Notes under the pieces: model-generated
What the model was told of the DNA's origin: nothing
The model's database searches: none
The model's input: only the letters and a program-made list of their open reading frames with translations
Assembly: GCA_024761205.1 (NCBI GenBank)
Contig: JAMASS010000046.1
Location: forward strand, 1-32,983
Reading direction: 5' to 3'
Origin: Limisphaerales bacterium
GTDB taxonomy: Bacteria > Verrucomicrobiota > Verrucomicrobiia > Limisphaerales > AAA164-E04
Length of the DNA: 32,983 bases
Shown here: positions 333-15,179 of the stretch, in pieces
Numbering within the stretch: position 1 is the first letter of the stretch
How the letters are laid out: each line of letters opens with the position of its first letter
Made by a program: the position numbers and the translations under genes

Positions 333-2576
333 ATGGCTGCATCTGCAATCATTTGCTTCATCCCCTATCGAACGCTTCGATGGCTGGCGCTCGCGTTGTT
401 CACCATTACCTCGGCCACGGCGGGGGACTTCGTCATCGTTGTCGACACGTCCGGCTCCATGACCAAAGCCATCTCGCCGTTCGACAAACGCATTCGGATA
501 AAGGTCGTTCAGGAGGCGTTGCGAGCTCATCTCCAAGCCCTGCTTCAGGAACAGGAATCGCGGATCACGCTCATTTCGTTTAATACCGGAATTCAATCGA
601 AAATCGAAGTCTCCGGAAAAAACGCTCACGAGCAAGCCTTCCAATGGATTGAGGGACTGGCGGATGAAGCAAGGGGGCCAGGCCGAGACAAGACGTTTCT
701 CTGGACGACGTTGCGCGAAGCGCTGCGGGTCGCCGAAGGTTACTCCCGGCAAGCTCCGGGACAAACGGTCAACGTCCGGGTGCTCACCGACGGGCAGGAC
801 AACGAGAATGTCACGACTTTCCCGAAAATTCTCGACGAATTCCCCCTCGTAGACGGAAAGAGCATACGGGGCAACCTCGTCATTCTCGGTGATTTGGTCA
901 TGGACTTGAAGCCGCACCCGAGATTCGATATTATCTCCGACCCCCATTTCGAGGTGCTTTTCCCGCCGGTCATCCTCAGGTGTCCGAAAGAGGTCCGAAT
1001 CGGTGAGGCAATGCGGGCCTTCGACAACTCGAAATCCGGCTATGAGCATTACTCCTGGAGCGTGGACGGTCAAGAAGTGAGCAATTCCAAAGTGCTAACA
1101 CATACCTTCACCTCCCCCGGAGCGCACACCATAACCCTTGATGCAAGAGGAGCGAAAGGCGGACGGACACGATCGCAGATCACCCTTCAAGTCACCCGCC
1201 CCGTTTCCCGGGTGGCTTTCAAGGCGCCGGCGGAAGCGGCGCACCGACAGGCCGTGCAATTTGCCAATGAATCCGAAGGAGATTTTGTCTCCTTCCATTG
1301 GGATTTTGGCGACGGTGCGACCAGCACTGAGCGGTCCCCTCTGCACCGTTACACCAATCGTGGCCCCAAGCCAAAAAACTTCGACGTTCAACTCGTCGGC
1401 GTTCTCGCCTCCGGCAAACGAATTGACGGCGTTCCCCACCATCTGACTATCCTTCCCCCCGCCGCCTTTCCGCCTCCACAAGCCGCCATCCGCTTCGACG
1501 AAACAGCCGAAATCACCGTCGAGCAAAGCGTTCAGTTTTTCGACGAATCCACCGGCCTGGTCGAATCCCGGCACTGGAACTTCAATGACGAAGGCGAAAG
1601 TCTATCCAGACATCCCGAATTCACCTTCGCCGCACCGGGAGAAAAGACGATTACGCTCACGGTCCAAGGTCCCGGTGGACAATCCGTCGATAGACGATCC
1701 ATAACCGTCCTTCCCCTTGCCCTGAACATGGAACTGGGCTGGTTGAACCGACAGAACCTCCCTATCGCAGCGCCCGGAATCATAAATTTCGGTCCCATCC
1801 AAGCCTCCCAAGTCCAGCAAGAGGGCCGCACGACTCCGTCCGTCGGACGGTTCGTGGTGCGCTTCCCGAGGGAACTTCCCTCCGGAAACGGTTTTCGACT
1901 GGAGTTTTCCGACAACCTTAATGAAGTGCTTTGCGTCCGCACTTACGATCCCGGCACCGGCCAACGCAGAGCCCTGGACTCCAATCTGTTACGAACTGGA
2001 ACATTCGAAATCGCGTTTGTTCCGAACGCGTCCATCGGCAATTGGTCAGGTGAAGTCCGTTTCATTCCGGTCGGCGAACGCCTGCTCGTCAATGGCTTCG
2101 GCCTACCCGTCGCCATCCCGGTGAAAGTCGCCATCAGAGGTCGGGGCACGCAACTGTTCTACGGGCTGATCATCCTAGTAGCGGCATTCCTTCTATTCTT
2201 ATTATTTCTCCGAAAAAAAGCAACGGCGGGCCTCGCCATACCGCCCGACGTAAAAATGCGAGTGGAACTTACCGAAACGTCGCCCCTCGACGCGACGGTG
2301 GTGCGGCCACCAGAACCCTTCACTCTGGAAAGGCACGACCGCATCTATCTCAGCCAAGCGGATGTGGAAAGTCCCGACGACTTCGTCTATGACCTCGACG
2401 CGAAAGGCTACTCTTTCCTCCGCCAGTCCAAGACGCTCGATTTCTGCCGACCCACAGGCAAACCAAAGCCGGTCCGCACCTCGGATTCCATCAAAATTTC
2501 CTCCACCGACGGCACCAAACGAACCCTGCAAGTGACCATTGCCGAAGATATGGATTCAGACCGTTTTTCCGACTGA
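333..2576 (+). CDS. Exported VWA-PKD protein with C-terminal membrane anchor
   Basis: 747 residues. An N-terminal signal sequence (about 1-30, ending ITSATA) is followed by a von Willebrand A domain (about 32-215) with an intact metal site: D38-T-S-G-S42 and T-D153-G. Two or three PKD-type beta-sandwich repeats follow (about 225-520); the clearest has W323-D-F-G-D-G328. One transmembrane helix (about 606-627) is followed by R-K-K and a roughly 120-residue tail, probably cytoplasmic. I infer a periplasmic adhesion or scaffold protein that could pass information across the membrane. I chose ATG 333 because AGAGG lies just upstream and the signal peptide begins there; the in-frame ATG at 243 would start inside the terminal repeat. 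It lies upstream of the tubulin-like gene on the same strand, and VWA proteins are known genomic partners of one FtsZ-like family. Domains are clear; the role is inferred. Confidence 0.82.
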   Translation: MAASAIICFIPYRTLRWLALALFTITSATAGDFVIVVDTSGSMTKAISPFDKRIRIKVVQEALRAHLQALLQEQESRITLISFNTGIQSKIEVSGKNAHEQAFQWIEGLADEARGPGRDKTFLWTTLREALRVAEGYSRQAPGQTVNVRVLTDGQDNENVTTFPKILDEFPLVDGKSIRGNLVILGDLVMDLKPHPRFDIISDPHFEVLFPPVILRCPKEVRIGEAMRAFDNSKSGYEHYSWSVDGQEVSNSKVLTHTFTSPGAHTITLDARGAKGGRTRSQITLQVTRPVSRVAFKAPAEAAHRQAVQFANESEGDFVSFHWDFGDGATSTERSPLHRYTNRGPKPKNFDVQLVGVLASGKRIDGVPHHLTILPPAAFPPPQAAIRFDETAEITVEQSVQFFDESTGLVESRHWNFNDEGESLSRHPEFTFAAPGEKTITLTVQGPGGQSVDRRSITVLPLALNMELGWLNRQNLPIAAPGIINFGPIQASQVQQEGRTTPSVGRFVVRFPRELPSGNGFRLEFSDNLNEVLCVRTYDPGTGQRRALDSNLLRTGTFEIAFVPNASIGNWSGEVRFIPVGERLLVNGFGLPVAIPVKVAIRGRGTQLFYGLIILVAAFLLFLLFLRKKATAGLAIPPDVKMRVELTETSPLDATVVRPPEPFTLERHDRIYLSQADVESPDDFVYDLDAKGYSFLRQSKTLDFCRPTGKPKPVRTSDSIKISSTDGTKRTLQVTIAEDMDSDRFSD

Positions 2577-2745
2577 GGCGATCAGCTTCCGTTTCACAAT
2601 GCCCCGTTAAGACTTGCTGCAAGGCAGAGCCCAAACTAGCTTATGCCCGGAAGCCCTTGGTCAAAGAATGGCCGACTTCCCTGAAACGCTCGCTCAAACC
2701 CTTGACCCATCTAATATGCGTTAAACTGTTAAGAGAGGAAGATAA

Positions 2746-3015
2746 ATGGAAACAGAGGAACTTATATCTTATCTATCCAATAAGATTCAAACGCAAGCAA
2801 TGGCAGAATCAGAGAGAATTGCTTTAATTCGCCAGCTTCAAGAAATCAGATCGAAAGAAATTAACCAAAATAAAGAAAAATGGAAGAAAAGGTTTATTGC
2901 AGCGGCTACTATTGGGCTGTCCATTTGGATTTCGATTTTGGTTTTGATAATTATGGTTTGGTTTATACTTGGCATTTTTGGCATTTATATTATGACCGAC
3001 AACAAAACATTATGA
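2746..3015 (+). CDS. Small single-helix membrane protein before the tubulin-like gene
   Basis: 89 residues. The first 48 or so form a charged, probably helical or coiled region. K-K-R then leads into a long hydrophobic helix (about 50-82, rich in I, L and W) and a short tail ending MTDNKTL. A good ribosome site (GAGAGGAAG) precedes ATG 2746. The stop overlaps the tubulin-like start (ATGA, 3012-3015), which implies translational coupling. The coding sequence is clearly more AT-rich than its neighbours. The last residues copy the tubulin-like protein's own N-terminus because of a 20-bp tandem duplication; without it the two frames would be fused. I recognise no family. It may act as a membrane anchor or adaptor for the tubulin-like protein, or it may be the detached N-terminus of that protein. 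Confidence 0.65.
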   Translation: METEELISYLSNKIQTQAMAESERIALIRQLQEIRSKEINQNKEKWKKRFIAAATIGLSIWISILVLIIMVWFILGIFGIYIMTDNKTL

Positions 3016-3028
3016 CCGACAACAAAAC
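2989..3028 (+). repeat. Perfect 20-bp tandem duplication spanning a start codon
   Basis: ATTATGACCGACAACAAAAC occurs at 2989-3008 and again, directly adjacent, at 3009-3028. Each copy contains an ATG. The second ATG (3012) starts the tubulin-like gene; the first lies inside the upstream small gene in its own frame. Twenty is not a multiple of three, so the duplication separates two frames that would otherwise be continuous. Confidence 0.95.
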
Positions 3029-6023
3029 CGACAGCGACTTCACCATCAGCCCCAGCCTATTCATCGGCTTGGGCACCAACGGCTGGCAAATCCTCGACGA
3101 CCTCCGCAAGCTCATGTTCGAAGAGTTCGGCCGCGCCGGGCTTCCCTGCTGCCGCTACCTCGCCCTAGAAACCGACGCAGGGAAAAAACCGGACAACAGC
3201 TTGCTCCCCAACGAACCGGCGCCCTACGAGAAAATCGACCCGCGCTACATCACGCTTCCCAGCGTGGACATCGTCAAAAAACGCATCCAGTCGAAAAGTG
3301 GAGAACACGGCTACGTCGACGGCTTAAGTGAATGGCTCGACCCGAGGCTCATCAACAATCAAGGCACGAAAAGCTTCACTGCCGGCGCCGGCCACATCCG
3401 GCAAGCCGGTCGGCTCTGCCTCTGGGAAAACTGGGACTCCGTCGCCGAGGGCTTGGAAAAATCCATCCAAGCCATCAAAGACCCAATCCATCACAGCGAA
3501 GCAGACGCCTTCTTGCGCGACGACTACTTTCCGAGCAAACACAGCGACGCCCAGGTGCCCTCGCAATCTTTCATCAACGACGCCCCCAAGGTCTACATCT
3601 GCGGCACCTTCTGCGGCGGCACTTGCAGCGGCACCTTCATTGACGTGGCCTACTTCGTCAACGAACTGCTCGGCATCCGCAACCGAAGTGCCATGAGAGG
3701 CGGCAACCAGTCCAAAGTCATCGGTCTTTTCACTTTCATTGACAACAAAAGTCTCAAACCAAACAAAAAAGTTCACCTCATCAACTCCTGGGCCGCCCTG
3801 CGCGAGCTTGACTTCTACTGCCAAGGCAGCAGCAGCTATCAGGCAAAGCTTCCGGACGGACGCGACATCGAGACCTCGGACGAACCCTTCGACACAGTCT
3901 ATCTCGAATCTATGGCCAACTCGGACACCACCTTCAACAACGAAAACGGCCTCACCCAAATGTGCGCCATGAACCTCTTCACCGAAGTCGTGACCGGCAT
4001 GGCCGATGACAAAGATACCATCCGCGTCAACTTCACCTCCGTGGACGGCTACATGGACCCCAACGTCTCCGGCTACCTGCGCGCCTTCAGCGCCTTCGGT
4101 CTCTCCGCCATCTGGTATCCCCGCTACCGCATCTCCCGCGCCATCAACCGGACGCTGGCCATCGACATGATTGCCGCTTGGCGCGGCCACGAAGCCACCG
4201 TCAACCAAAACACGCTGGACGAGGATGTTCAGAGAGACTGGAACAAAATCTACAACCGGGCCAAAAACAGCCTCATCGGTGCCGTGGAAGGCGCCCGGTG
4301 CCCTCAAAATCTTCCCGGTGAGATTGACGCCCTCTTCAGGAAAGAACAGGCCGGATTCGCCTACATTGAATGGGAAGGAATCGAAAGCTACCTGAGCACC
4401 TTCCCCAAGAAAGCCCCCTTGAGCGACCGGTTGCAGCACCCCCAAGGCGACTATTACCGCAAAATCAGCAATGCCGGAACCCTCGCCACCAAAGACCTGA
4501 GAACGAGTCTCGAAAAATCCCTCATCAAATACCTGGCCAACCACACCGTCGCCGAGGCCAAGGCATACGTCCAACGCCTCATCGAAAAATCCCAGCAAGC
4601 CCAGGCCGAACTCCCGGAAAACCTGCCGGACTCCCCCAAACTCGTTGACTTCAACCCGGAACAAGGCGTTCCCGGCAATCCCTTCGGCCAGTGGTTGCGA
4701 CGGGAAAGACCCAAGTCCCTGAGCCAGTGGCCCGTTTATTTGCTCAATCTGGCCGCATGGTTTCTCTTAAACAAAAGGCGTCCCCAAGCTGAAGAGCCCT
4801 ACCGGCGCGTCATCTGGAGAGAGGCACGCCAACGCGCCAAAGACCACCTCAACAAAATCAGAAACTCCACTCTCCACCGAGTGCTCGAAAACAGCCTCCA
4901 ATTCATGGAAGACCTAGACCGGCGCGTCGATGCAGTCGACGCCCGGCTGAAGACGTTTCAGGACACCTGCGAAAAAGAAAGAGACAGACTAATCGCCCCC
5001 CAAACCGCCAGCAACGTGCTCATCATCTCCCAAGACGATCCCGACAGCCTCGAAGACGACGTGAACCAAGGCGTCGCCGAAATCCGGAAAAACCGGGACG
5101 CCAAATCCTGGCGCCGCGAATTCATCGGCAAAGACGACGATCCCATCGCCCTTATGGAAAATGAACGCATTGATAACCTCATCTTGCGCGTGGACAAGGC
5201 ATTCAACCGGGACAGCCAATCCGTGACCAACCAATTCCAAATCGGCAAAGAAGCCGTCTCCAATTTCAAAAAGCACATCCGGCGCCTCGTCAAAAGCTCC
5301 CTGCCCTACGTGGAAACCGTCGGCGAGTGGAAACCCCTGCCGATGCCGAAATTGCCCAACCGCCTCTTCTGCCATGACTCAGACGCCGGAAAACAATTGA
5401 CCGCCGCCGCCAATGAGGAACTGCAAAACACCGACGACTACAAAGAAGCAATCGTCAACCTTGGCCATTTTGTCTTCCTTTACCGGGAAATCGCCGGACT
5501 CACCATCACCGACCTCGCCATCCACAAGCACGCCGCAAAGGAACTCGACATCTCGGAAAAAAACCCCCGAGCCTTTTACACCAACTTCACCCATCAAGGC
5601 GGGGAAAACTTCTTCAACCTCCAACGCGATGAAGACTTCAAACACCTCCGCCGGTGGATCGACGCCATGCGCTACCTCTCCCCCGACTCCTTCAAAGAAC
5701 GCGGCGAATCCCTCATGCTCCAATACAAAAACGAACAAGGCATGAGAGTGGAAATCGCCGTCGAACGCAAACGCGCCCTCACCAAAGAACTGCGCAAATT
5801 CCTCGAAAAACACGAAGCCCAGACCCTCATCGATCAATTCCAAGAAACCCTCCGTGCCCTCGGCAAACCCGCCGTCATCCGACGCATGGAGGCCGAAGTG
5901 GAAAAACTTCCCGAAAACGATAGCAAAGCCCGGAGCGAAATGCAGGGAAGACACGAAAAAATCCTCGCCGAAACCTTCCTCGCCGACTCGCTCGACCGGA
6001 AAACACCGGCGACGGACCGCTGA
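3012..6023 (+). CDS. FtsZ/tubulin-like protein (Tubulin_2 type), 1003 residues
   Basis: The N-terminal 450 or so residues look like the prokaryotic tubulin-like family: a Rossmann-type opening FIGLGTNGW (17-25) and a variant tubulin signature loop C201-G-G-T-C-S-G207 within CGTFCGGTCSGTF, where FtsZ/tubulin has GGGTGSG. Residues 450-1003 are mostly charged and helical with a likely coiled-coil stretch, much longer than FtsZ. I infer a nucleotide-binding, possibly filament-forming cytoplasmic protein with a large helical arm. ATG 3012 is chosen because it overlaps the upstream stop; the frame is open to 2880 but would run antisense to nothing and over the small gene. In published comparative work one such family co-occurs with VWA, GTPase and OmpA-family membrane proteins and was proposed to remodel membranes. 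A 446-codon open frame on the opposite strand is a composition artefact. Confidence 0.82.
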   Translation: MTDNKTDSDFTISPSLFIGLGTNGWQILDDLRKLMFEEFGRAGLPCCRYLALETDAGKKPDNSLLPNEPAPYEKIDPRYITLPSVDIVKKRIQSKSGEHGYVDGLSEWLDPRLINNQGTKSFTAGAGHIRQAGRLCLWENWDSVAEGLEKSIQAIKDPIHHSEADAFLRDDYFPSKHSDAQVPSQSFINDAPKVYICGTFCGGTCSGTFIDVAYFVNELLGIRNRSAMRGGNQSKVIGLFTFIDNKSLKPNKKVHLINSWAALRELDFYCQGSSSYQAKLPDGRDIETSDEPFDTVYLESMANSDTTFNNENGLTQMCAMNLFTEVVTGMADDKDTIRVNFTSVDGYMDPNVSGYLRAFSAFGLSAIWYPRYRISRAINRTLAIDMIAAWRGHEATVNQNTLDEDVQRDWNKIYNRAKNSLIGAVEGARCPQNLPGEIDALFRKEQAGFAYIEWEGIESYLSTFPKKAPLSDRLQHPQGDYYRKISNAGTLATKDLRTSLEKSLIKYLANHTVAEAKAYVQRLIEKSQQAQAELPENLPDSPKLVDFNPEQGVPGNPFGQWLRRERPKSLSQWPVYLLNLAAWFLLNKRRPQAEEPYRRVIWREARQRAKDHLNKIRNSTLHRVLENSLQFMEDLDRRVDAVDARLKTFQDTCEKERDRLIAPQTASNVLIISQDDPDSLEDDVNQGVAEIRKNRDAKSWRREFIGKDDDPIALMENERIDNLILRVDKAFNRDSQSVTNQFQIGKEAVSNFKKHIRRLVKSSLPYVETVGEWKPLPMPKLPNRLFCHDSDAGKQLTAAANEELQNTDDYKEAIVNLGHFVFLYREIAGLTITDLAIHKHAAKELDISEKNPRAFYTNFTHQGGENFFNLQRDEDFKHLRRWIDAMRYLSPDSFKERGESLMLQYKNEQGMRVEIAVERKRALTKELRKFLEKHEAQTLIDQFQETLRALGKPAVIRRMEAEVEKLPENDSKARSEMQGRHEKILAETFLADSLDRKTPATDR

Positions 6024-6113
6024 ACCTTCGGCCTCCGAAAAGCGAAAACCAAGCGCACCGCCGCAAACGAACGCCCGCCATCCCCTTCCGCAAAAATCAG
6101 CGGACGCCCCGGC

Positions 6114-7505
6114 TCACCGCCCGATAAACGCGCCGTCCGTTTCCTTGGCGACATCGATGAGGAATTTGCCGAATTCCCCCTGAAAATAATCGCCGATGGC
6201 CACCGTGTTCACGGTCACGCCCAGCCGACGTTTGTTCGTGCGGCACAAGTCGACGATGTCTCTCATATTTTGCCGAATCCGCTTTCGGGTTTGGCGGGGC
6301 AGTCGCGGCTCACCGTCCGTGAACAGGATGATCGTTTGCAGATTCGGATAGCGGTAGGCAGCTTCCAGGGCATCCAGCGTGCCGGTGTGTTCCTCCGGCT
6401 GAATACCTTGAATCTTCTGAATCAGGTTGGACCGATTTGTGCCTCCGTCCGCTCCGGAAACGTCGAGAAACTGCCGGTTCGGCGGAAAGGCGTCGACCTT
6501 TTCGTTGAAGGTGATCAGAAAACAATTTTTCATCGCCAAATGCTCGAGCCAGGTTTCTACCACCTGTTTGGATTCCTCCCACCGCTCACCCTTCATGCTG
6601 GAAGACCGATCGAGCAAAATGCCGACGAATTCCAAATCCCCCTTCAGTCCCAGGAGCTTTTTATGCACGCTCTCTTTTCCGGCACCGTCGCTTGCCTTAG
6701 CCTTCGCCAATTGGCTGTGCAAGTCGCGATTCTCGGCCTTAGCCGTCGCCAGTTCCTGCTCCCGGGATTGCAAAAGTTCTTCGATTCGGTGCTTTTCAGC
6801 GCTGAGGTCACTGATTTCATTTTTTGCCTCCGCCAGTTCCCACTCCCGGGATTGCAAAAGTTCTTCGATTCGGCGCTTTTCAGCGCTGAGGGAGCTGATT
6901 TCATTTTCCCGCTGCAAGGTTTTCTTCTTAGCCTCCTCCAAATCGCGCTTCAGGGATTCCAATCGTTCTTCAATTCGGCGCTTTTCCGCCTTAGCCTTCG
7001 CCAATTGGCTGTGCAAGTTGCGATTCTCGGCCTTTGTCGCCGCCAGTTCCGTCTCCCGGGATTGCAAAAGTTTTTCGATTCGGTGCTTTTCAGCGCTGAG
7101 GTCACTGATTTCATTTTTTGCCTCCGCCAGTTTCTGCTCCCGGGATTGCAAAAGTTCTTCGATTCGGCGCTTTTCGGCGATGAGGGAGCTGATTTCATTT
7201 TCCCGCTGCAAGGTTTTCTTCTTAGCCTCCACCAATTCGCGCTTCAGGGATTCCAATCGTTCTTCAATTCGGCGCTTTTCGGCCTTAGCCTTCGCCAATT
7301 GGCTGTGCAAGTCGCGATTCTCGGCCTTTACCTCCGTCAGTTCCTTCAATTGTTTTTCGAGGTTGGGTTCATTTTTCGCCGATTCGTCTTTCACTGCCGC
7401 CAATCGACCGGCAGAGATGAGCACGACGCCGACGAGTGCCAGCCAAGCCAATTCGTTGAAGGAAATGAACAACGGCCAGTTAAAGTTGGTGTGGGTGCGT
7501 TTCAT
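6114..7505 (-). CDS. MotB/ZorB-like membrane protein with coiled coil and VWA domain
   Basis: 463 residues. A short basic N-terminus is followed by one transmembrane helix (about 10-33). The motif PLFISFNEL before the helix resembles the entry segment of MotB/OmpA-type stator proteins. Residues 40-265 form an almost pure coiled coil of E/K/R/L heptads with repeated EKRRIEELLQSRE and AENRDLHSQL blocks. Residues 285-463 form a VWA domain with D299-R-S-S-S303 and T-D397-G-E-P. Positive-inside charge suggests the coiled coil and VWA domain are periplasmic. I chose ATG 7505; the frame is open further upstream only through TTG. It sits immediately downstream of the long coiled-coil membrane gene, like a MotAB or ZorAB pair, but with VWA where OmpA would be. 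Extra ORFs of 399 and 417 codons on the + strand are shadows of the repetitive coiled coil. Confidence 0.78.
   Translation of the reverse strand: MKRTHTNFNWPLFISFNELAWLALVGVVLISAGRLAAVKDESAKNEPNLEKQLKELTEVKAENRDLHSQLAKAKAEKRRIEERLESLKRELVEAKKKTLQRENEISSLIAEKRRIEELLQSREQKLAEAKNEISDLSAEKHRIEKLLQSRETELAATKAENRNLHSQLAKAKAEKRRIEERLESLKRDLEEAKKKTLQRENEISSLSAEKRRIEELLQSREWELAEAKNEISDLSAEKHRIEELLQSREQELATAKAENRDLHSQLAKAKASDGAGKESVHKKLLGLKGDLEFVGILLDRSSSMKGERWEESKQVVETWLEHLAMKNCFLITFNEKVDAFPPNRQFLDVSGADGGTNRSNLIQKIQGIQPEEHTGTLDALEAAYRYPNLQTIILFTDGEPRLPRQTRKRIRQNMRDIVDLCRTNKRRLGVTVNTVAIGDYFQGEFGKFLIDVAKETDGAFIGR
6694..7319 (-). repeat. 294-bp in-frame tandem repeats encoding the coiled coil
   Basis: The block starting GCCTTAGCCTTCGCCAATTG recurs at 6694, 6988 and 7282, an exact 294-bp period. 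294 bp is 98 residues or 14 complete heptads, so each added unit keeps both frame and coiled-coil register. Two units and part of a third are present, with only scattered differences between copies. A shorter internal period is also visible within each unit. Confidence 0.9.
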
Positions 7506-7596
7506 CAAAAAAATGGCGGCTAGCGATAGGCGCCGGCAGACCAGATCGTTTACAGAACCTTGCTTCTTAACTCGGGGCCAGCGCTGTGAATTGCGA

Positions 7597-9687
7597 TCAT
7601 CCCTTATTCCCAAAAGGCCACCATGACTTCTTACTATTTGCGTGTTTTTTTAACCCCTCGAGCACCTCGGACACTTCTTTCAGCTTGGCGGTTATTTCGT
7701 CCAAAGATTGTGCCAGGGGATTCATTTTGCAGCAGGTTTCTTGCAATCTGTCGCTAAAATCATCGACGGATTTACCGCCCATCTCCAGACTCAAGTTTCT
7801 ATTGCTCAATCTTTCGCTCAACCTGCCGGTGAAGCGCCCGACCGTGTCTGCGGCCTGTTGCAGTTCGGTGCAGGCTTGATTGAATTTCTCACAAAAACGG
7901 GCGACCTCTTGGTGCGCTTTGCCCGTTTCTTCCTGCGCTTTGCCCGTTTCTTCCTGCCAAGTTTGAGTATGCTTTCCCGTCTCGGCCACCTTTTGGCTGA
8001 GAACGCTGAACTGCTCGCGCAAGTTTCCGGCACTTTCCTGCAAGGTTGCCGCTGTCTCCGCGAGATTCGTTTTGAAAACCTCGATCTCTTTTCGGCTGTG
8101 GTTGGTCAAGGAGGTCGCTCCGTCTAAGGATTCCGAAAAGCCAGCCACTTTGTCCGCGCTTTTGCTCAATTCGCCGATGAAATCAGCGACCGTTTCCACA
8201 GACTTTTGCAGATTGTGGCTGGCATTGCCGAAGGCCGTGCAGAAATCGCCGATTTCTTTGTTGGCGTCTGTTTTCAGTCGATGGCACATATTGTCGAACG
8301 CCGTGAGGAAATCATCGATTTTTTTGTGCGCGTGGACCGTCTGTTCCTGCCAAGTTTGAGTATGCTTTCCCGTCTCGGCCACCTCTTGGCTGAGAACGCT
8401 GAACTGCTCGCGCAAGTTTCCGGCACTTTCCTGCAAGGTTGCCGCTGTCTCCGTGAGATTCGTTTTGAAAACCTCGATCACTCCTCGGCTGTGGTCGGTC
8501 AAGGAGATCGCTCCGTCCAAAGATTCCGAAAAGCCAGCCACTTTGCCCTCGCTTTCGCTCAATTTGCCGATGAAATCAGCGACTATTTCCACAAACTTTT
8601 GCAGATTGTGGCTGGCATTGCCGAAGGCCGTGCAGAAATCGCCGATTTCTTTGTCGGCGTCTGTTTTCAGTCGATGGCACATATTGTCGAACGCCGTGAG
8701 GAAATCATCGATTTTTTTGTGCGCGTGGACCGTCTGTTCCTGCCAAGTTTGAGTATGCTTTCCCGTCTCGGCCACTGCGTCACCGAGCAGGGTGACTTGT
8801 TTGTTGGCGTTTTGCGCGTATTGGCCCAAGTCTTGCAGTGAGTTCGATGCGCTTTCCAGCCGTTCGGCCAGCGTTTGGATGCGTTCGGATTGCGCGGCGA
8901 TCTTCTGCCAGTTCAACTGAACTTTTTCGGCATTGTCGGTCATCCTGTCGATCCGCTTGTTCATGTTGCCCATTTTCCGGCTCATGTCCCCCAATTCCAC
9001 GCTCAGTTGATGAACCGTCCTAGTGGCCGTTGAGGAAACCTCTTTAAGATCTCGCAACCCCTCATTGCCGGCCTGAATGCCGCCGACTAGTTGCTGAATG
9101 TCGCCGACTAGTTGCTTGAGGTTTTGGGACAGTTCGGAGGCATTCATCAATTGGGAAAATTCTTCCATGCGCGTGGCTTCCAGAGCTTCCATGCGGGCAC
9201 TGAAGCTGTCGAAATTTTTAGCGATATCCTCTATAATGCGTTGCATTTGACTGGTGTTGCGTTCGGCATCCTGTCTCCTGGCCTCTTGCTCGATCTCGAA
9301 GGCCCTGGCGCGGAAAAAGTTCATCCCGATCAATCCGATAATCGTGCAAAACACGCTCACGCCGCCAAGTATTAGCAGATCTTCGGGAGCCTCCTTCAGC
9401 AAAGCAGTATCTCTCCCCAACCGAAAAAGAATGCAGACCAAGCCGGTGATGGTGGCAATGTAGCCGACAAAATAATAGTGCTCGGCTCGCTGATTCAGGA
9501 CCTCGGCATCTTCTCCCGCTTTCCGGTAGGAAAGACGGCCGTAAACGATGAATACGATCACCCAGAAGATCGAAACCGCGCTCCCGACAATCGGCTTCAC
9601 AAGCCAGCCCACGAGTGGGGATACGAGGACCATTACCACCGCAACGATTGGCATGTACCGATGCGCCGCATTAAGAAATTTTGACAT
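7597..9687 (-). CDS. Four-helix membrane protein with long coiled-coil tail (MotA/ZorA-like layout)
   Basis: 696 residues. Hydrophobic helices lie at about 11-30, 33-50, 71-91 and 103-122. The last two contain IATITGL and GGVSVFCTIIGLIGMNFF, which resemble the paired pore helices of MotA/TolQ/ExbB proteins (T..GL, then a GG...T..GL helix). Residues 130-690 are a long coiled-coil rod, probably cytoplasmic, containing a recently duplicated 131-residue unit. ZorA of Zorya defence has a similar plan: ion-channel-like helices plus a long intracellular tail. No OmpA gene is nearby, but the adjacent downstream gene is a MotB-like protein with a VWA domain, and the 92-bp gap suggests one operon. ATG 9687 has only a weak ribosome site. 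The MotA/ExbB link is by eye and moderate; the coiled coil is certain. A simpler alternative is a non-motor membrane rod protein. Confidence 0.72.
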   Translation of the reverse strand: MSKFLNAAHRYMPIVAVVMVLVSPLVGWLVKPIVGSAVSIFWVIVFIVYGRLSYRKAGEDAEVLNQRAEHYYFVGYIATITGLVCILFRLGRDTALLKEAPEDLLILGGVSVFCTIIGLIGMNFFRARAFEIEQEARRQDAERNTSQMQRIIEDIAKNFDSFSARMEALEATRMEEFSQLMNASELSQNLKQLVGDIQQLVGGIQAGNEGLRDLKEVSSTATRTVHQLSVELGDMSRKMGNMNKRIDRMTDNAEKVQLNWQKIAAQSERIQTLAERLESASNSLQDLGQYAQNANKQVTLLGDAVAETGKHTQTWQEQTVHAHKKIDDFLTAFDNMCHRLKTDADKEIGDFCTAFGNASHNLQKFVEIVADFIGKLSESEGKVAGFSESLDGAISLTDHSRGVIEVFKTNLTETAATLQESAGNLREQFSVLSQEVAETGKHTQTWQEQTVHAHKKIDDFLTAFDNMCHRLKTDANKEIGDFCTAFGNASHNLQKSVETVADFIGELSKSADKVAGFSESLDGATSLTNHSRKEIEVFKTNLAETAATLQESAGNLREQFSVLSQKVAETGKHTQTWQEETGKAQEETGKAHQEVARFCEKFNQACTELQQAADTVGRFTGRLSERLSNRNLSLEMGGKSVDDFSDRLQETCCKMNPLAQSLDEITAKLKEVSEVLEGLKKHANSKKSWWPFGNKG
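7951..8775 (-). repeat. 393-bp in-frame tandem duplication in the coiled-coil tail
   Basis: TTCCTGCCAAGTTTGAGTAT starts at 7951, 8344 and 8737, an exact period of 393 bp or 131 residues. Units 7951-8343 and 8344-8736 are nearly identical, with scattered substitutions, and a partial third unit follows. At the downstream end a short tandem repeat encodes EETGKAQEETGKAH. The near identity shows recent lengthening of the rod without loss of frame. Confidence 0.92.
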
Positions 9688-10164
9688 AAATCACAATCTT
9701 GCTCTCCGCTTCCACAAACGCCTTGGGGATACGTTCGGTGCGGTATCCGCAGTCGGGTCGGTTTCAGGTGTGAGCCGGTAAAAATGCGGTGTGGCCGCCC
9801 GGGTTGTCAAGCGTCGAGGTTCGGCTTCAGTGGCGGTCGAGCACACGCATTCGATTCGGTCCGCCTCAGGCGTGTGCTTGGCGGTCCGAAATTCGATTTC
9901 TCACCCGCCCTTGGCGGAACTAGTGGCGACCATACAACTCGACAGCGAAAAAAGACGCAAACCCTGATAGAACGAACCGATCGGCGGCAAAGGCAGCGTG
10001 AGCAGGAGTGAAAAGCCCGGCTGGCGCAGATCGAAGCGGAGATGAAGAAGGAACACCGCCGGAAGATTCTCGAAATTCTAGGGCGGACGCAGGATTGGGA
10101 TGAATCAGCTCAGGGCTCCTTCTTGTCGGTGCTGTGTTCCGTGTCCTCAAAGGCATTTGTTGGA
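9688..10164. other. Gene-poor stretch, degraded sequence
   Basis: I see no convincing gene. Short open frames on the + strand from 9784 onward include basic, Q/R/E-rich helical segments (for example around 9950-10100) broken by stops, consistent with remnants of a larger gene such as part of a type I restriction locus. The promoter of the divergent coiled-coil gene should lie near 9690-9760, but I see no strong sigma-70 match. Confidence 0.4.
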
Positions 10165-10419
10165 TACCTAGCTGTGGCGAAGATCAGAACGGCAATCAAC
10201 CAAGGCTTTATCGCGATGAAATGCAGCAAGAGGTTGTCCGCAGAATTTGTGCGCCGATTCGTCGAAACCACCGGACTTCTTTTCGAGAAAACTACAGCGA
10301 ACATCAAAGAATCCCACACCCTGACCTGCTTGCTCGACACGCTCCTGCCCAAGCTGCTCTCCGGCGAGTTGTCTGTGTCCGCCACCCGATCCCAGAGCTC
10401 TGAAATTCCAGAATGTTGA
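10165..10419 (+). pseudogene. hsdS: Remnant of type I restriction specificity subunit (HsdS C-terminus)
   Basis: The + frame reads AKIRTAINQGFIAMKCSK followed by about 25 residues and then TLTCLLDTLLPKLLSGELSV. The INQGF.AM segment and the closing LRDTLLPKLLSGEL-type segment are hallmarks of the second half of HsdS DNA-specificity proteins. In an intact HsdS they are separated by far more sequence, so an internal deletion is likely. The region upstream does not continue as HsdS, and no HsdM or HsdR is present. The remnant can no longer select a DNA target. The assignment rests on remembered family motifs. Confidence 0.6.
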
Positions 10420-11032
10420 TCAATGGATTTCACTGCATCTGGCCGATTGAAAACAGTCCCTCCGTCATTGATCCTGGGGTGTTGTTCTACAAACGCGCAG
10501 AAAAGTTGCGGCATCGGCCCGTTGCGATGAAGGTTATACAAGACAGACGGAAGAAGGTCCGTGTAACCGGCGGGCGAAGATTTCACCAATGCGCAAATCT
10601 TACCTCCATGCCCGAAATCCCAGGACGTACAAACTCAAGTCGAAAGCATCGGCTTTCTGTGCGCTCAGAATTTCTGCAGCTACACTTCAAATTGAAGGGG
10701 CGGTCATCCTCACAGACCGCATCGCTTCAAGCAGTTGTGTTAGATTACTGACGCTCTCTCAGGTGAATCTATTGGTCTGCGAAGCCATTTGCGCCAGTTG
10801 ACTGGCGCCACCCAAACAATCCGATCGCCTATTCGCCGGCTTTCCTGGATCGGTTCACGGAAATTTTCCTCGTCAAGGTAAAGGGGTATGCGGTGCGGGC
10901 CGCTCCTGTCACGGAAGGACGGATCGAAACGCATAGGGAGGGCAAAAAACCTTTACCCGATTTCCGGCGTCCGGTAAGTTTCCTCGCTAACTCATGTAGC
11001 AACCCGACAACCGCTAACTCAAAGATTCCGCT
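10420..11032. other. Intergenic stretch upstream of the ParB-like gene
   Basis: About 600 bases without a gene I can support. Open frames on both strands (for example 10413-10751 on the + strand) have no recognisable domains. The only clear structure is an 18-bp palindrome at 10791-10808. The ParB-like gene's promoter should lie in the last 250 bases, but I see no good -35/-10 pair. Confidence 0.4.
10791..10808. promoter_or_regulatory. Perfect palindrome upstream of the ParB-like gene
   Basis: GCGCCAGT, a two-base centre TG, then ACTGGCGC: a perfect inverted repeat with 8-bp arms. It lies 225 bp upstream of the ParB-like start and has no T-run, so an operator or partition-type site is more likely than a terminator. 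Function is inferred only from symmetry and position. Confidence 0.35.
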
Positions 11033-11932
11033 ATGCCCAAGAAAAGTCCCGACAAAGAGTTCCCCTTTAATACGATCGTTTCCGTGCCGCTGAACGAAAT
11101 CGATCAAGAAAGCAGCATCAACGTTCGGCGCACCGGAATCGAGGAGAACGTCGAACTGATCAAATCCTCCATTGAGTCCCGCGGCTATTTGCCGGAGTTC
11201 CCTGTCTCGTTGCGTCCGCATCCCGACCCCCAATCAAAGTATGCCTATGAGAACGTGCAGGGCCAATGCCGGATGAAGGCGGCCTTTGCGCTGAAGCTCA
11301 CGGAAATCCCAGCCGTCATTGTCGATCTGGACAACGACGCGGCCTTGCAGCACTCGTTCATGGAGAACTCCAAGCGCACCGAACTGTCCTTCCCGGATTA
11401 CACCTATTGGGTGGAGCGGAAATACAACGAGTTCATGAAACAGGGAATGACCAGCGACGAAGCTTTCAAGAAAACCGCCGCTTTCTGGGACCTCAAGGTC
11501 AAGAAGGCCGAAGAATACTTTGCTCTTCACGCGCTGCCCGACGAAGTCAAGGAGATGGTCGATCACAAGGAACTGCCGCAGAACGCTGCAATGACTATTG
11601 TGAAGAGCTGCCGCAACTCGTTCGACAAGGCGAAGGAGCAGCAGGATATGAAGGACCGCGCCAAGTGGTTTTGCGAACAGGACCGGGGACGTCGCCAGGA
11701 CGCCCGCAAGGCGATACGCGACTGCGGCTCCAACGCCAGCCTGGAGGATGTGGAACAGAAATTCGAGAAACTAGCCAGCGAGGGCCGAAGCAAGATCGCC
11801 GTCCTCGTCCCCGCCGAATCCATGGACGAGCTGATGGAATACGGCAAGGAGCGGGGCCTCTACGAACCCGAAGCCATCATCGGCTACATGGTGGCAGAGG
11901 CGCTGAAGAAAACTAGCACCCGCTCCCGATGA
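11033..11932 (+). CDS. ParB/Srx-fold DNA-binding protein
   Basis: 299 residues. Residues 12-110 resemble the ParB N-terminal (CTPase/Srx) domain: IVSVPLNEID opening, N-V-R-R, an E-N-V-E-L-I-K-S-S-I-E helix, and GQCRMKAA in place of the canonical G-E-R-R-x-x-A box. A helical, HTH-like middle follows (about 125-200), with a basic, charged C-terminal part. It could bind a specific site and use CTP, as ParB proteins do, but there is no parA beside it and no visible parS cluster. It may instead be a regulator or part of an accessory locus. The start ATG 11033 has no strong ribosome site. Its end overlaps the next gene by four bases (ATGA at 11929-11932), which implies coupling. Confident on the fold, unsure of the role. 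Confidence 0.75.
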   Translation: MPKKSPDKEFPFNTIVSVPLNEIDQESSINVRRTGIEENVELIKSSIESRGYLPEFPVSLRPHPDPQSKYAYENVQGQCRMKAAFALKLTEIPAVIVDLDNDAALQHSFMENSKRTELSFPDYTYWVERKYNEFMKQGMTSDEAFKKTAAFWDLKVKKAEEYFALHALPDEVKEMVDHKELPQNAAMTIVKSCRNSFDKAKEQQDMKDRAKWFCEQDRGRRQDARKAIRDCGSNASLEDVEQKFEKLASEGRSKIAVLVPAESMDELMEYGKERGLYEPEAIIGYMVAEALKKTSTRSR

Positions 11933-12735
11933 ACGAGGATGAGGCGCGGGCCGTTCTGGCCAAGGCCACCAAGAAGGACAAGCTCGCTGCGCTTGTCGAA
12001 GCGCTCGACGCCCTCCCGCGTTACGAAACGCTCCGGGAGCTGTTGCGTGCGCTGGGCCGCGGAGAGGAGAAATCAAGGAGCGCCTACTGGAATAGACTGC
12101 GCAAAGTCTATCAGGCTCACCGCTTGCCGGGCGGCATCCGCTGGAAGGTGGTCCAAGGGGAAATCCCGGTTTCACAGGCCGAGTTCATTGCCCAACTTCC
12201 CGATGAAACCGACCAATATACCCTGGCGCTCGCCATCGTCAGCAGCCGCGAAAAACGCGAAAAATTCTCTCTGGGCGAATGCAAGAGCATTGTCCGGCTA
12301 GTTCTCAAAGGGAAGGACGGCAAGCAGTATTCCATCCGGGAAGCCTTGGATAAAGTGGCCAGCTTCCGCTTCAGAGATCGTCCCCAACTGCTGGATGTTT
12401 TGAACGTCAAGGAATGGATCGAGGTGAACAAAGAGGCATGGAAGCGCCAATTGCCATGGGAGAGCTTCTGTCATCGGCTGATCACGAAAAAATCGAGCAT
12501 CCTCACCGACATCAAGACGGTTGAAACTCATTTGGGCAAGCCGGGAGCTGACCTGAAAGAGTCAGAGGCAGGCATTCAAAGCGACGTCGAGGCGGTTAAA
12601 ACTCAACTGGGCAAGTTGGACACCGACCTTGAAAAGTTGAAGACAAGCATTCAAACCTACATCGAAGGCGTCGAAAAACAATTGGACACCCTCGCGGAGA
12701 AATTGCGGAATTTGTCCGACCTGTCCGGCGAATGA
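11929..12735 (+). CDS. Uncharacterised coiled-coil protein coupled to ParB-like gene
   Basis: 268 residues, not a family I recognise. The N-terminal 170 residues are mainly helical and charged, with a basic stretch near 60-90 (RSAYWNRLRKVYQAHRLPGG) that could contact nucleic acid. The last 100 residues contain a repeated coiled-coil motif of about 27 residues: VETHLGKPGADLKES, VKTQLGKLDTDLEKL, then VEKQLDTLAEKL. Its start overlaps the ParB-like stop, so the two are probably made together and may form a complex. Codon use and GC content resemble the ParB-like gene, which argues that the pair moved as a unit. It could be an accessory partner or loader; this is inference from context. Confidence 0.68.
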   Translation: MNEDEARAVLAKATKKDKLAALVEALDALPRYETLRELLRALGRGEEKSRSAYWNRLRKVYQAHRLPGGIRWKVVQGEIPVSQAEFIAQLPDETDQYTLALAIVSSREKREKFSLGECKSIVRLVLKGKDGKQYSIREALDKVASFRFRDRPQLLDVLNVKEWIEVNKEAWKRQLPWESFCHRLITKKSSILTDIKTVETHLGKPGADLKESEAGIQSDVEAVKTQLGKLDTDLEKLKTSIQTYIEGVEKQLDTLAEKLRNLSDLSGE

Positions 12736-15179
12736 CCGACCGCAACCAGGGGAGTCCGCGCGGAGGCTTCACGCTCTCTGGCTCCATGCCCTTGGCTCAT
12801 TCATTGCGGTTTCCAGCCTTTTGAAGGCGCGATCGAGATGTCCTGGGTCTTTCTCTGACAACCATCAATTCGAATCGGTAATCGGAAGTTGGAATTGCTG
12901 GCCTTGGAAACTTGCCGTCAATTTGGCGAACTAGAGCCATACAAGCTGACAAAGGAAATTTCTCCTGTCGCAGGTAAAAACAGGAAGAAGACTCACAACG
13001 GCCTCGGGAAGTCGGCGCATTGTCCTCATTTTTCGTAGGGGACTGCATGACGTCTTTCCCGGCTCCGAACGACTCCGCTCCGAAGATTCGCGGTTCCCTG
13101 GATTCCCTCGCGCCGGTCCGCTGCCCGGCCAATGCCGGAGAAGCTGTTAGCTGACTCGGCCCTGTGAGCGGTGGCGCAGGCCACAACGGAACTGCCGGCA
13201 GCGCTCCTTTCCGCTGGACCAGATGGTGTTCGTCTTGGAATCCCGGTTTGACAGGAAGATCGACGTCTTCATTTCTCAGGTGGAGTTTGCGCGTGCGAAC
13301 CGTTGAATCATCATCAATTCAGGGCGGGAGCTTTATTGCAAATGGTTCTTTGAGTGCTTGGTGGATTCTGTTCAACAGGCAAGACCGATGCCCCGTGCTG
13401 CACGAGCGCGGGTGGAGGACATGCTGCGGGGCATTGAGGCGGGGCTTAGCGATCAAACGCCGGGATTCTTGCAGACTGGGAGGCGGGCATGTCACAAGCG
13501 TCTATCGCAGCCGAGCATTGGATTCCCCTAGTGCGGGTTTCGGTAATTTCGAATTTTTAGGGAGGCATGAGGTTTCGTAACTTGTCGGCTCTTTGCATTG
13601 CATGGGTTGGCGAAACCGGATTGGGGGTCTGAAGATCATTGGAACGGGATTTCAGGATAAGCCCGTCTGCATGGCCAGATGGAGATATTTTTTGGGATTG
13701 CGCAGCGGTCGGCGTTGGCTCCTGGAAACCGGTTCTGCCGCGGCGAATCTCAACTCCCTTGAAGATCGCAGCTGAGCGAGCGCGGCAAGGGGGAGCTCAG
13801 AGAGGCGCCCAAGGATGGCAGCGTTGACGACGAGCCTCAGCGCGCTTTCCTGCCCGCGCGAGGCTGTGAGGGTCTTCGTGCCGGTTGAGTTGGGGCCGAG
13901 GGCGGTGGGACGCATCGTCGATGTAGGCCAGCGGAAAGAAGGGGCTCGAAACGGTGGCCGAGGTCTCCGAGGGCCTGAGTGAGCGTGGAGGGGTGTTTGG
14001 AACGAAGGAGCTAAGGGATGCGTTCTGAAGCATTCACCGTTCCCATTCATCAAGGAGACTGCGAGGCTGTCTTCTCTCAATTTCGGGCGAGACGCTTGGT
14101 GTTCACCAGATGCCGCGAGCGGCCGTTAAATGGCCCGTTGATCGGCGCCGGGATCAATCTGCCAGAACTCAGGCGGCTCCGATTGTCCGCAAGGCGTGGA
14201 CTGAGTTTTGGCAGACCCCCAAGGCGGCATCGCTCGCCCTAGTGATACTTGATGACTGGCTCTTCGGCTTCTCGCCTTTGAAGCGCACCGTCTTGAGCTA
14301 GGTTGGAAGGAAGCGCCGAGTGCTCCGGCAGCGATGCAACGAGTTCTTCGTCCGCCCGTTGGCTGAGCCGAGGGCTTGGACTCTGGCAATTCCTCAAGGA
14401 GCGCTTCTTGAGGCCCTCGGGCGAGGCTGGACTCTCGGACTGTCATCGGCACAAGACTGGGGGCGCGCAGAGAACGACAGCCAAATCTTGCGGACGGTGA
14501 CATCTATTCGGGCGCCTATCTTCAATCAATCCGAGACGATATTCGTGCCTGGTGTTTTGGCTTGGGAGATGCCCGAAAGACCGTGCCTCAGGACGTAAGC
14601 AAATAAAGAGAATTACAATCGCAACGGGTTAGCACCCATCGTTTCGCTGCTAGTGCGATCAGCAGACCGTCCCCTGCTCCTTGATGGGGTTTTCCATATT
14701 TGCCCACCGCACGCCGTTCCCGGGACTGCAACGGGTTGGGTTCGATAGTGGAAGCCGCGAAAGCGCCCGGCGCGTTCGCCCGTGTGCTCACGCTCTGGCT
14801 TCGGGCCTCAGCCCTCTTCCCGCACAGGCCGTAAGCAGTTGTTGCGGGCCAATCTCAGGAGGCAATCAACTCGATTGGTCTTGCACCAATTCATCGTTGG
14901 AATCGCGGCAAAACCCCGCCTCCCCTCGGACAATCAGGTGCGTCTTGGGGAGCAGCGTCCATCCGTTTGACCAACAAGGCGTTCGATTTCCTCCATCAAG
15001 AGAGCGGGAGAAGCGGTCAAAAAAACGCTCGATAGAGCGTCGCCTGGACGCGGCCATGATGCTCCGATCCGAACGTTAAATCAACGGATGAACCCACTTC
15101 TGGGATGAGCTGGCGCCCTTATCCTGAAATCCTGTTCCGATGATCCTCAAACTCCGCATATGCGAGGTCACAAGCTCTA
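12736..15179. other. 2.4-kb region with no recognisable gene
   Basis: GC-rich sequence with many short overlapping open frames on both strands but no conserved domain, tRNA or ribosome site I can support. A broken frame around 13222-13540 (MVFVLESRFDRKIDVF, then ELYCKWFFECLVDSV, then a basic segment) hints at a decayed gene with at least one frameshift, family unknown. A - strand frame near 13800-14080 also looks partly protein-like but matches nothing I know. This reads as decayed or non-coding DNA next to the core block. Confidence 0.45.

What the first reader, a model, noticed from the sequence alone, without database searches (positions are those of the whole stretch)
333..9687. Tubulin-like protein beside VWA and MotAB/ZorAB-like coiled-coil membrane proteins
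Five adjacent genes combine an exported VWA-PKD protein, a small membrane protein, a large FtsZ/tubulin-like protein, a MotB-like VWA protein and a four-helix membrane protein with a long tail. One FtsZ-like family is known to co-occur with VWA and OmpA-family proteins and was proposed to remodel membranes; Zorya uses a MotA/MotB-type pair with a long tail for phage defence. This locus mixes both themes, with VWA in place of OmpA. It could be a membrane-remodelling or defence machine; the grouping is by proximity and convergent orientation.
Basis: partly seen in the sequence, partly recalled or inferred. Interest (0 to 1): 0.85.

Follow-up and report, generated by a model that had tools for sequence, protein, structure and literature searches.

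The report
Tubulin-like envelope machine with motor-like pair
A bacterium carries, on what looks like a mobile island, a tubulin-like filament protein with a sensor-like partner next to a pair of membrane proteins shaped like an ion-driven rotary motor but with an unusual ligand-binding head; a related tubulin-like protein in Deinococcus travels with a more ordinary version of that motor, so this may be an undescribed kind of powered cell-envelope machine.

Summary
The five genes are real and at the stated places. The + strand trio (VWA-PKD receptor, small membrane protein, Tubulin_2 protein) is a member of the FtsZl1/VWA system described by Makarova and Koonin in 2010. The - strand pair is a four-helix membrane protein with a long coiled-coil tail, followed by a one-helix protein with a long coiled-coil stalk and a VWA head. 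It looks like a stator (MotA/ZorA + MotB/ZorB) with VWA in place of the peptidoglycan-binding OmpA domain. The B-subunit motif (SFNEL against AFSDL) and an AlphaFold/structure comparison support this; sequence profiles do not confirm it for the A subunit. The link to the tubulin is not just proximity: the window's FtsZl1 groups (98/96) with FtsZl1 of Deinococcus plasmids. They share an unusual CGGTCSG loop, and all four Deinococcus operons encode a MotA-like plus an OmpA/MotB-like protein after FtsZl1. However, the only other VWA-type pair found lies in a genome without FtsZl1, so the pair is a separable module. Defence is suggested (Thermales FtsZl1 inside an Hma/BrxL cassette; an HsdS remnant here) but unproven. 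Verdict: a new variant of a known kind; the motor-FtsZl1 association was not found in the papers searched.

The parts
333..2576 (+). VWA-PKD receptor-like protein (P0001): signal helix, VWA with MIDAS, three PKD stretches, TM near residue 610, ~115-aa cytoplasmic end
   Evidence: homologue upstream of FtsZl1 in G118 (E 4.5e-112), G175 and G015
2746..3015 (+). small one-TM protein (P0002, 89 aa), stop overlapping the FtsZl1 start
   Evidence: a small TM protein holds the same position in Deinococcus operons
3012..6023 (+). FtsZl1 / Tubulin_2 protein (P0005, 1003 aa)
   Evidence: PF13809 E 2.5e-44
3612..3632 (+). nucleotide-binding T4 loop read as CGGTCSG instead of GGGTG(S/T)G, shared with the Deinococcus clade and SKYG83
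   Evidence: sequence
6114..7505 (-). B subunit (P0003): TM helix, ~250-aa coiled-coil stalk, C-terminal VWA with MIDAS
   Evidence: model shows TM helix 16-42 then one helix 46-255
7404..7475 (-). MotB/ZorB-like TM segment with SFNEL (Glu where stators have Asp)
   Evidence: Deinococcus AFSDL; G343 SFSEI
6189..6620 (-). VWA domain of the B subunit, in the place of OmpA
6694..7344 (-). 294-bp tandem duplication (2.2 copies, 95% identity) in the B stalk
7597..9687 (-). A subunit (P0004): four TM helices then a ~560-aa coiled-coil tail
9283..9687 (-). four-helix membrane domain of the A subunit (MotA/ExbB/ZorA-like by model)
7944..8775 (-). 393-bp tandem duplication (2.1 copies, 95.7% identity) in the A tail
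10042..10419 (+). C-terminal fragment of a type I restriction specificity subunit (HsdS), flanking the system
   Evidence: PADLOC Specificity_I E 5.8e-13

Best explanation
One envelope-spanning machine. The VWA-PKD protein senses or binds something outside the inner membrane and passes this to the FtsZl1 filament protein inside, with the small TM protein as anchor. The minus-strand pair forms a stator-like ion channel complex: the A subunit makes the membrane ring and a long cytoplasmic rod; the B subunit makes the central helix with its ion-carrying Glu and a long rod ending in a ligand-binding VWA head instead of a peptidoglycan-binding OmpA head. Ligand capture by the VWA head would open the motor, and ion flow would move or twist the cytoplasmic rod to drive or regulate FtsZl1 at the membrane. 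Most likely use: response to envelope attack, such as phage. Shown: gene content, domains, clade relation to motor-linked FtsZl1. Inferred: 5:2 assembly, ion flow, contact between rod and FtsZl1, defence.
For: The window FtsZl1 groups with Deinococcus FtsZl1 at 98/96 and shares the CGGTCSG loop. All four Deinococcus operons run small TM protein - FtsZl1 - MotA/ZorA-like protein with tail - OmpA/MotB-like protein (PF01618 E 2.7e-4 and ZorA E 1e-8 in L098). Two g3 genomes also carry MotA-like and MotB/OmpA-like genes in the FtsZl1 run. The VWA-type A/B pair is a conserved two-gene unit (G343, genes overlapping by 4 bp). The P0003 TM reads SFNEL and G343 SFSEI against AFSDL. Of the best 50 structural rows for the P0004 model, 24 are ExbB/TolQ/ZorA/PomA; ExbB 7ajq Z 9.6, type II ZorA 8vvi chain C, all 99 residues, 2.3 A, Z 9.2. 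Defence context: FtsZl1-VWA lies inside HmaC/BrxL/GajB-like genes in Thermales; HsdS remnant here.
Against: The A subunit is not recognised by PF01618 or PADLOC ZorA when the tail is removed. hhalign gives E 0.007, no better than a negative control at 0.004, and a TM3/TM4 motif score does not separate it from other membrane proteins. Helical bundles give middling Z by chance, and designed bundles rank first. The pair is convergent with FtsZl1, not in its operon. G343 has the pair but no FtsZl1 in the genome. Many FtsZl1 loci show no stator (Thermales, Azospirillum, G118, G015, G175).
Confidence: 0.4

Rival explanations
1. Two independent modules that happen to sit side by side on an island: a standard FtsZl1/VWA operon, and a free-standing stator-like pair with a VWA head.
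For: Convergent orientation. The only other VWA-type pair is in a genome without Tubulin_2. The region has no counterpart upstream of rnpA-yidD-yidC in three relatives and holds an HsdS remnant, so unrelated cargo is expected.
Against: The closest FtsZl1 clade is linked to a stator pair in 4 of 4 complete operons, which chance adjacency does not predict.
Confidence: 0.3
2. A housekeeping-like membrane remodelling or vesicle machine, as Makarova and Koonin proposed for FtsZl1, in which the minus-strand proteins are structural rods rather than a motor.
For: FtsZl1 with VWA, OmpA and membrane proteins was so interpreted (PMC2875224). In some lineages (family f4, several genomes) FtsZl1 recurs across species, suggesting a resident function. 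Sequence profiles do not confirm a stator for P0004.
Against: Patchy distribution (2 of 146 genomes in the order), location on plasmids, defence genes around it in Thermales, stator pairs in sister loci.
Confidence: 0.2
3. An anti-phage system proper: a Zorya-like motor whose effector is FtsZl1 instead of ZorC/D or ZorE. (This overlaps with the best explanation, which leaves the use of the machine more open.)
For: ZorA-like tail and A-then-B order; type II ZorA among the structural matches; FtsZl1-VWA inside an Hma/BrxL cassette in Thermales plasmids; tubulin-VWA systems in Bacillota and Actinomycetota already predicted as conflict systems (PMC7159879).
Against: No Zorya effector seen; OmpA domain absent; no test of protection; G343 neighbours match no known system clearly.
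Confidence: 0.25

Closest known systems
FtsZl1 (Tubulin_2) / VWA system of Makarova and Koonin 2010 (PMC2875224)
   Same: Tubulin_2 domain with long C-terminal part; VWA-TM protein beside it; membrane proteins around it
   Different: No GTPase, kinase or OmpA gene seen on this contig (left side missing); adds a stator-like pair, which that paper's text does not mention (no MotA/MotB/TolQ/ExbB)
Deinococcus plasmid FtsZl1 operons (L027, L028, L097, L098)
   Same: FtsZl1 sister clade, CGGTCSG loop, small TM protein upstream, stator A + B genes beside FtsZl1
   Different: B subunit has an OmpA head there and a VWA head here; the pair follows FtsZl1 there and converges with it here; a repeat protein (LRV/DUF2336 hits in L098) follows there
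Zorya (ZorAB, PMC11890865)
   Same: A subunit with short membrane core and long coiled-coil tail; B subunit with one TM and a large C-terminal domain; A before B
   Different: VWA instead of OmpA; Glu instead of Asp in the TM; long B stalk; no ZorC/D/E seen; FtsZl1 beside it
GAP1-N2 tubulin conflict systems (Kaur et al. 2020, PMC7159879)
   Same: tubulin-domain protein with coiled-coil or helical tail plus membrane VWA protein
   Different: those have GAP1 and DO-GTPase genes, not seen here; no stator described there in the passages read

Membership tests
Tubulin_2 / FtsZl1 | match to PF13809 over its cut-off across the N-terminal domain | tested here: met
   152 bits against 27, profile 1-353 of 356
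Tubulin_2 / FtsZl1 | GGGTG(S/T)G nucleotide loop | tested here: inconclusive
   reads CGGTCSG: GGT and SG kept, two Gly replaced by Cys, as in the Deinococcus clade
FtsZl1/VWA system (Makarova and Koonin) | VWA protein encoded beside FtsZl1 | tested here: met
   P0001; same pairing in G118, G175, G015 and Thermales
FtsZl1/VWA system (Makarova and Koonin) | predicted GTPase, kinase or OmpA partner (frequent, not universal) | tested here: inconclusive
   none in 333-12735 by Pfam, but the contig ends at base 1
MotA/TolQ/ExbB family | match to PF01618 | tested here: not met
   P0004 no hit; G343 homologue E 0.21, its only Pfam hit but under the cut-off
MotA/TolQ/ExbB family | stator A-subunit fold | tested here: inconclusive
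   model pLDDT 69; ExbB Z 9.6, type II ZorA Z 9.2, 24 of 50 rows stators, but Foldseek E 0.22 at best and helical bundles score by chance
Zorya | ZorB with peptidoglycan-binding OmpA-like domain | tested here: not met
   VWA_2 in its place, no OmpA hit
Zorya | conserved Asp in the ZorB TM helix | tested here: not met
   Glu in SFNEL and SFSEI of both members
Zorya | effector ZorC/ZorD or ZorE | tested here: inconclusive
   none among the eight proteins scanned; contig truncated on the left
Zorya | ZorA with long coiled-coil tail | tested here: met
   ~560-aa tail; PADLOC ZorA1 E 7.8e-13, on the tail only
GAP1-N2 tubulin conflict system | GAP1 and DO-GTPase genes | tested here: inconclusive
   no GTPase family match in 333-12735 (no GAP1-specific model was tried); left side unknown

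The most novel reading that the evidence does not exclude
A clade of FtsZl1 proteins (CGGTCSG type) is the cytoplasmic partner of an ion-driven 5:2 rotary motor. In the window lineage the motor's peptidoglycan-binding head was replaced by a VWA ligand-binding head on an elongated rod, giving a ligand-gated motor that works on a tubulin-like filament.
Probability: 0.25. Interest if true: 0.88.

Novelty: new variant of a known kind. Interest (0 to 1): 0.62.

Why it matters
FtsZl1 proteins have been known since 2010 without a tested function that I could find. A recurrent tie to a MotAB/ZorAB-like motor would give a concrete, testable idea: a tubulin-like filament driven or gated by ion flow. A stator with a VWA head would also be a new way to hook such a motor to a ligand instead of to peptidoglycan, and both would widen the range of envelope and defence machines built on the 5:2 motor.

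Tried and rejected
(1) Proving P0004 a stator by sequence: Pfam and PADLOC on the tail-free domain, hhalign against TolQ/ExbB and ZorA-like profiles with negative controls, a TM3/TM4 motif score against 119 membrane ORFs: none significant. PADLOC ZorA hits of the full protein are to the coiled coil only, so I did not use them as evidence. (2) More relatives: genome-contig scan with P0005 found none and with A4 one truncated contig; viral contigs found none with A2 and A4; phage records none for P0005; plasmids none for the P0004 N-terminus or the P0003 VWA. (3) PDB sequence search with A1: none. (4) Model of P0003: VWA poorly predicted from one sequence, so not searched. (7) The idea that G343's pair sits in a known defence system found no clear match.

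Full report
WHAT IS THERE. The window is the whole of contig C41 (32983 bp) of a 4.94-Mb genome, so the left neighbour of the system is not known. On the + strand: P0001 333-2576 (signal helix, VWA with MIDAS, three PKD stretches, TM, ~115-aa cytoplasmic end), P0002 2746-3015 (89 aa, one TM) and P0005 3012-6023 (1003 aa, Tubulin_2 PF13809, E 2.5e-44). On the - strand, converging with a 90-bp gap: P0004 7597-9687 (four TM helices in 125 aa, then a ~560-aa coiled-coil tail), then P0003 6114-7505 (one TM, ~250-aa coiled coil, VWA with MIDAS).

THE PLUS-STRAND TRIO. Tubulin_2 is the FtsZl1 family of Makarova and Koonin (PMC2875224), who noted VWA, GTPase, kinase and OmpA partners and proposed membrane remodelling; their text does not mention MotA, MotB, TolQ or ExbB. 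A VWA-PKD or similar protein directly upstream of FtsZl1 recurs in G118 (P0001 homologue E 4.5e-112), G175 and G015, and a VWA protein holds that place in three Thermales plasmids. The family is patchy: over the cut-off in 10 of 289 genomes of the phylum and 2 of 146 in the order. Kaur et al. 2020 (PMC7159879) placed tubulin-VWA loci of Bacillota and Actinomycetota among predicted conflict systems.

THE MINUS-STRAND PAIR. In 388 genomes of the phylum the pair was found only here and in G343 (the other hits are far weaker VWA matches, mostly in long proteins, not examined further). In G343 a 319-aa four-TM coiled-coil protein is followed, with a 4-bp overlap, by a 327-aa TM-coiled coil-VWA protein, so the two genes form a unit. 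G343 has no Tubulin_2 match in its genome (97% complete). The B-subunit TM begins PLFISFNEL here and PITISFSEI in G343; the OmpA/MotB-like proteins of Deinococcus begin YVAFSDL or YIAFSDL. The stator Asp is thus a Glu. The A subunit has the MotA order of helices, with a short loop between TM2 and TM3. A single-sequence AlphaFold model (residues 1-200, pLDDT 69) has the last TM helix running on into the tail (H101-172). In VIA-align, 24 of the best 50 rows are ExbB/TolQ/ZorA/PomA chains, among them ExbB 7ajq (Z 9.6) and the entire 99-residue chain C of type II ZorAB 8vvi (2.3 A, Z 9.2). Designed helical bundles rank higher, such Z values can arise by chance, and plain Foldseek gives no significant hit (best E 0.22, an ExbB). 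Sequence methods do not confirm it. I rate the A subunit as a probable, unproven stator fold.

WHY THE TWO HALVES MAY BELONG TOGETHER. A tree of 20 FtsZl1 N-domains puts the window protein with those of four Deinococcus plasmids and a MAG (SKYG83) at 98/96 support, although its branch is long. All six share CGGTCSG where the others keep GGTG. In the four Deinococcus operons FtsZl1 is preceded by a small protein (three TM helices by eye in L028) and followed (in D. radiophilus after an IS insertion) by a MotA/ZorA-like protein with a coiled-coil tail and an OmpA/MotB-like protein (OmpA E 1.6e-18; PF01618 E 2.7e-4 in L098, whose record names it MotA/TolQ/ExbB). Two genomes of genus g3 also hold MotA-like and MotB/OmpA-like genes in the FtsZl1 run (L021, L022; the MotA-like calls there are weak by profile, best E 0.004, and rest also on the GIAGTLWGI-type motif). 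So FtsZl1 plus stator is a recurring theme, and the window would be a version in which VWA replaced OmpA. Against this, the pair here is convergent and all five families together were seen only once.

TWIN ROD DUPLICATIONS. The B stalk holds a 294-bp unit (98 aa, 14 heptads) in 2.2 copies at 95% identity, and the A tail a 393-bp unit in 2.1 copies at 95.7%. Both partner rods were lengthened recently and to about the same divergence. The modelled B helix 46-255 would be about 31 nm long (0.15 nm per residue). The meaning is open.

CONTEXT. None of the window's proteins from 1 to about 15.8 kb has a match in the 12-17 kb upstream of rnpA-yidD-yidC fetched from three relatives, and a C-terminal HsdS fragment lies at 10042-10419: this looks like an island. 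In Meiothermus, VWA-FtsZl1-unknown lies between HmaC/PDC-S01 genes and BrxL and a GajB-like gene, with BrxL also downstream in Thermus and Allomeiothermus. An Azospirillum FtsZl1 lies by caspase-domain proteins. This makes a defence role plausible for some FtsZl1 systems; nothing here tests it.

MECHANISM. Shown: domains, order, clade, recurrence. Inferred: the B VWA head, on the outer side of the membrane by analogy with MotB/ZorB, binds a ligand (MIDAS intact); the A/B complex conducts ions; the A tail transmits the motion to FtsZl1 or to its membrane anchor. Confidence 0.4 for this as a whole. Rivals: unlinked modules (0.3), a Zorya-like defence system with FtsZl1 as effector (0.25, overlapping with the best explanation), motorless remodelling machine (0.2).

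MEMBERSHIP. It is a Tubulin_2/FtsZl1 locus. It is not filed as Zorya: the OmpA domain and the TM Asp were tested and not met. It may still work like one.

Noticed in passing
2989-3028: Perfect 20-bp tandem duplication (ATTATGACCGACAACAAAAC) over the P0002 stop and the FtsZl1 start, so P0002 ends and FtsZl1 begins with MTDNKT.
   Followed up: no
6694-7344 and 7944-8775: Both partner coiled coils carry recent tandem duplications (294 and 393 bp) of nearly equal divergence (5.0 and 4.3%).
   Followed up: partly
L094 2127-18386, L095, L096: In three Thermales plasmids VWA-Tubulin_2-unknown protein lies upstream of BrxL (in Allomeiothermus with an IS between) and, in Meiothermus, downstream of HmaC/PDC-S01: a tubulin-like protein inside a defence cassette.
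   Followed up: partly
11033-12735: ParB_N-domain protein with a coiled-coil partner gene overlapping by 4 bp, right of the HsdS remnant; possible plasmid or phage origin.
   Followed up: no
L100 12384-15614: Azospirillum plasmid FtsZl1 beside caspase-domain, DUF4384 and OmpA proteins.
   Followed up: no
12750-15100: About 2.3 kb with no convincing gene between the ParB-like pair and an AraC-like ORF; probably decayed sequence.
   Followed up: no
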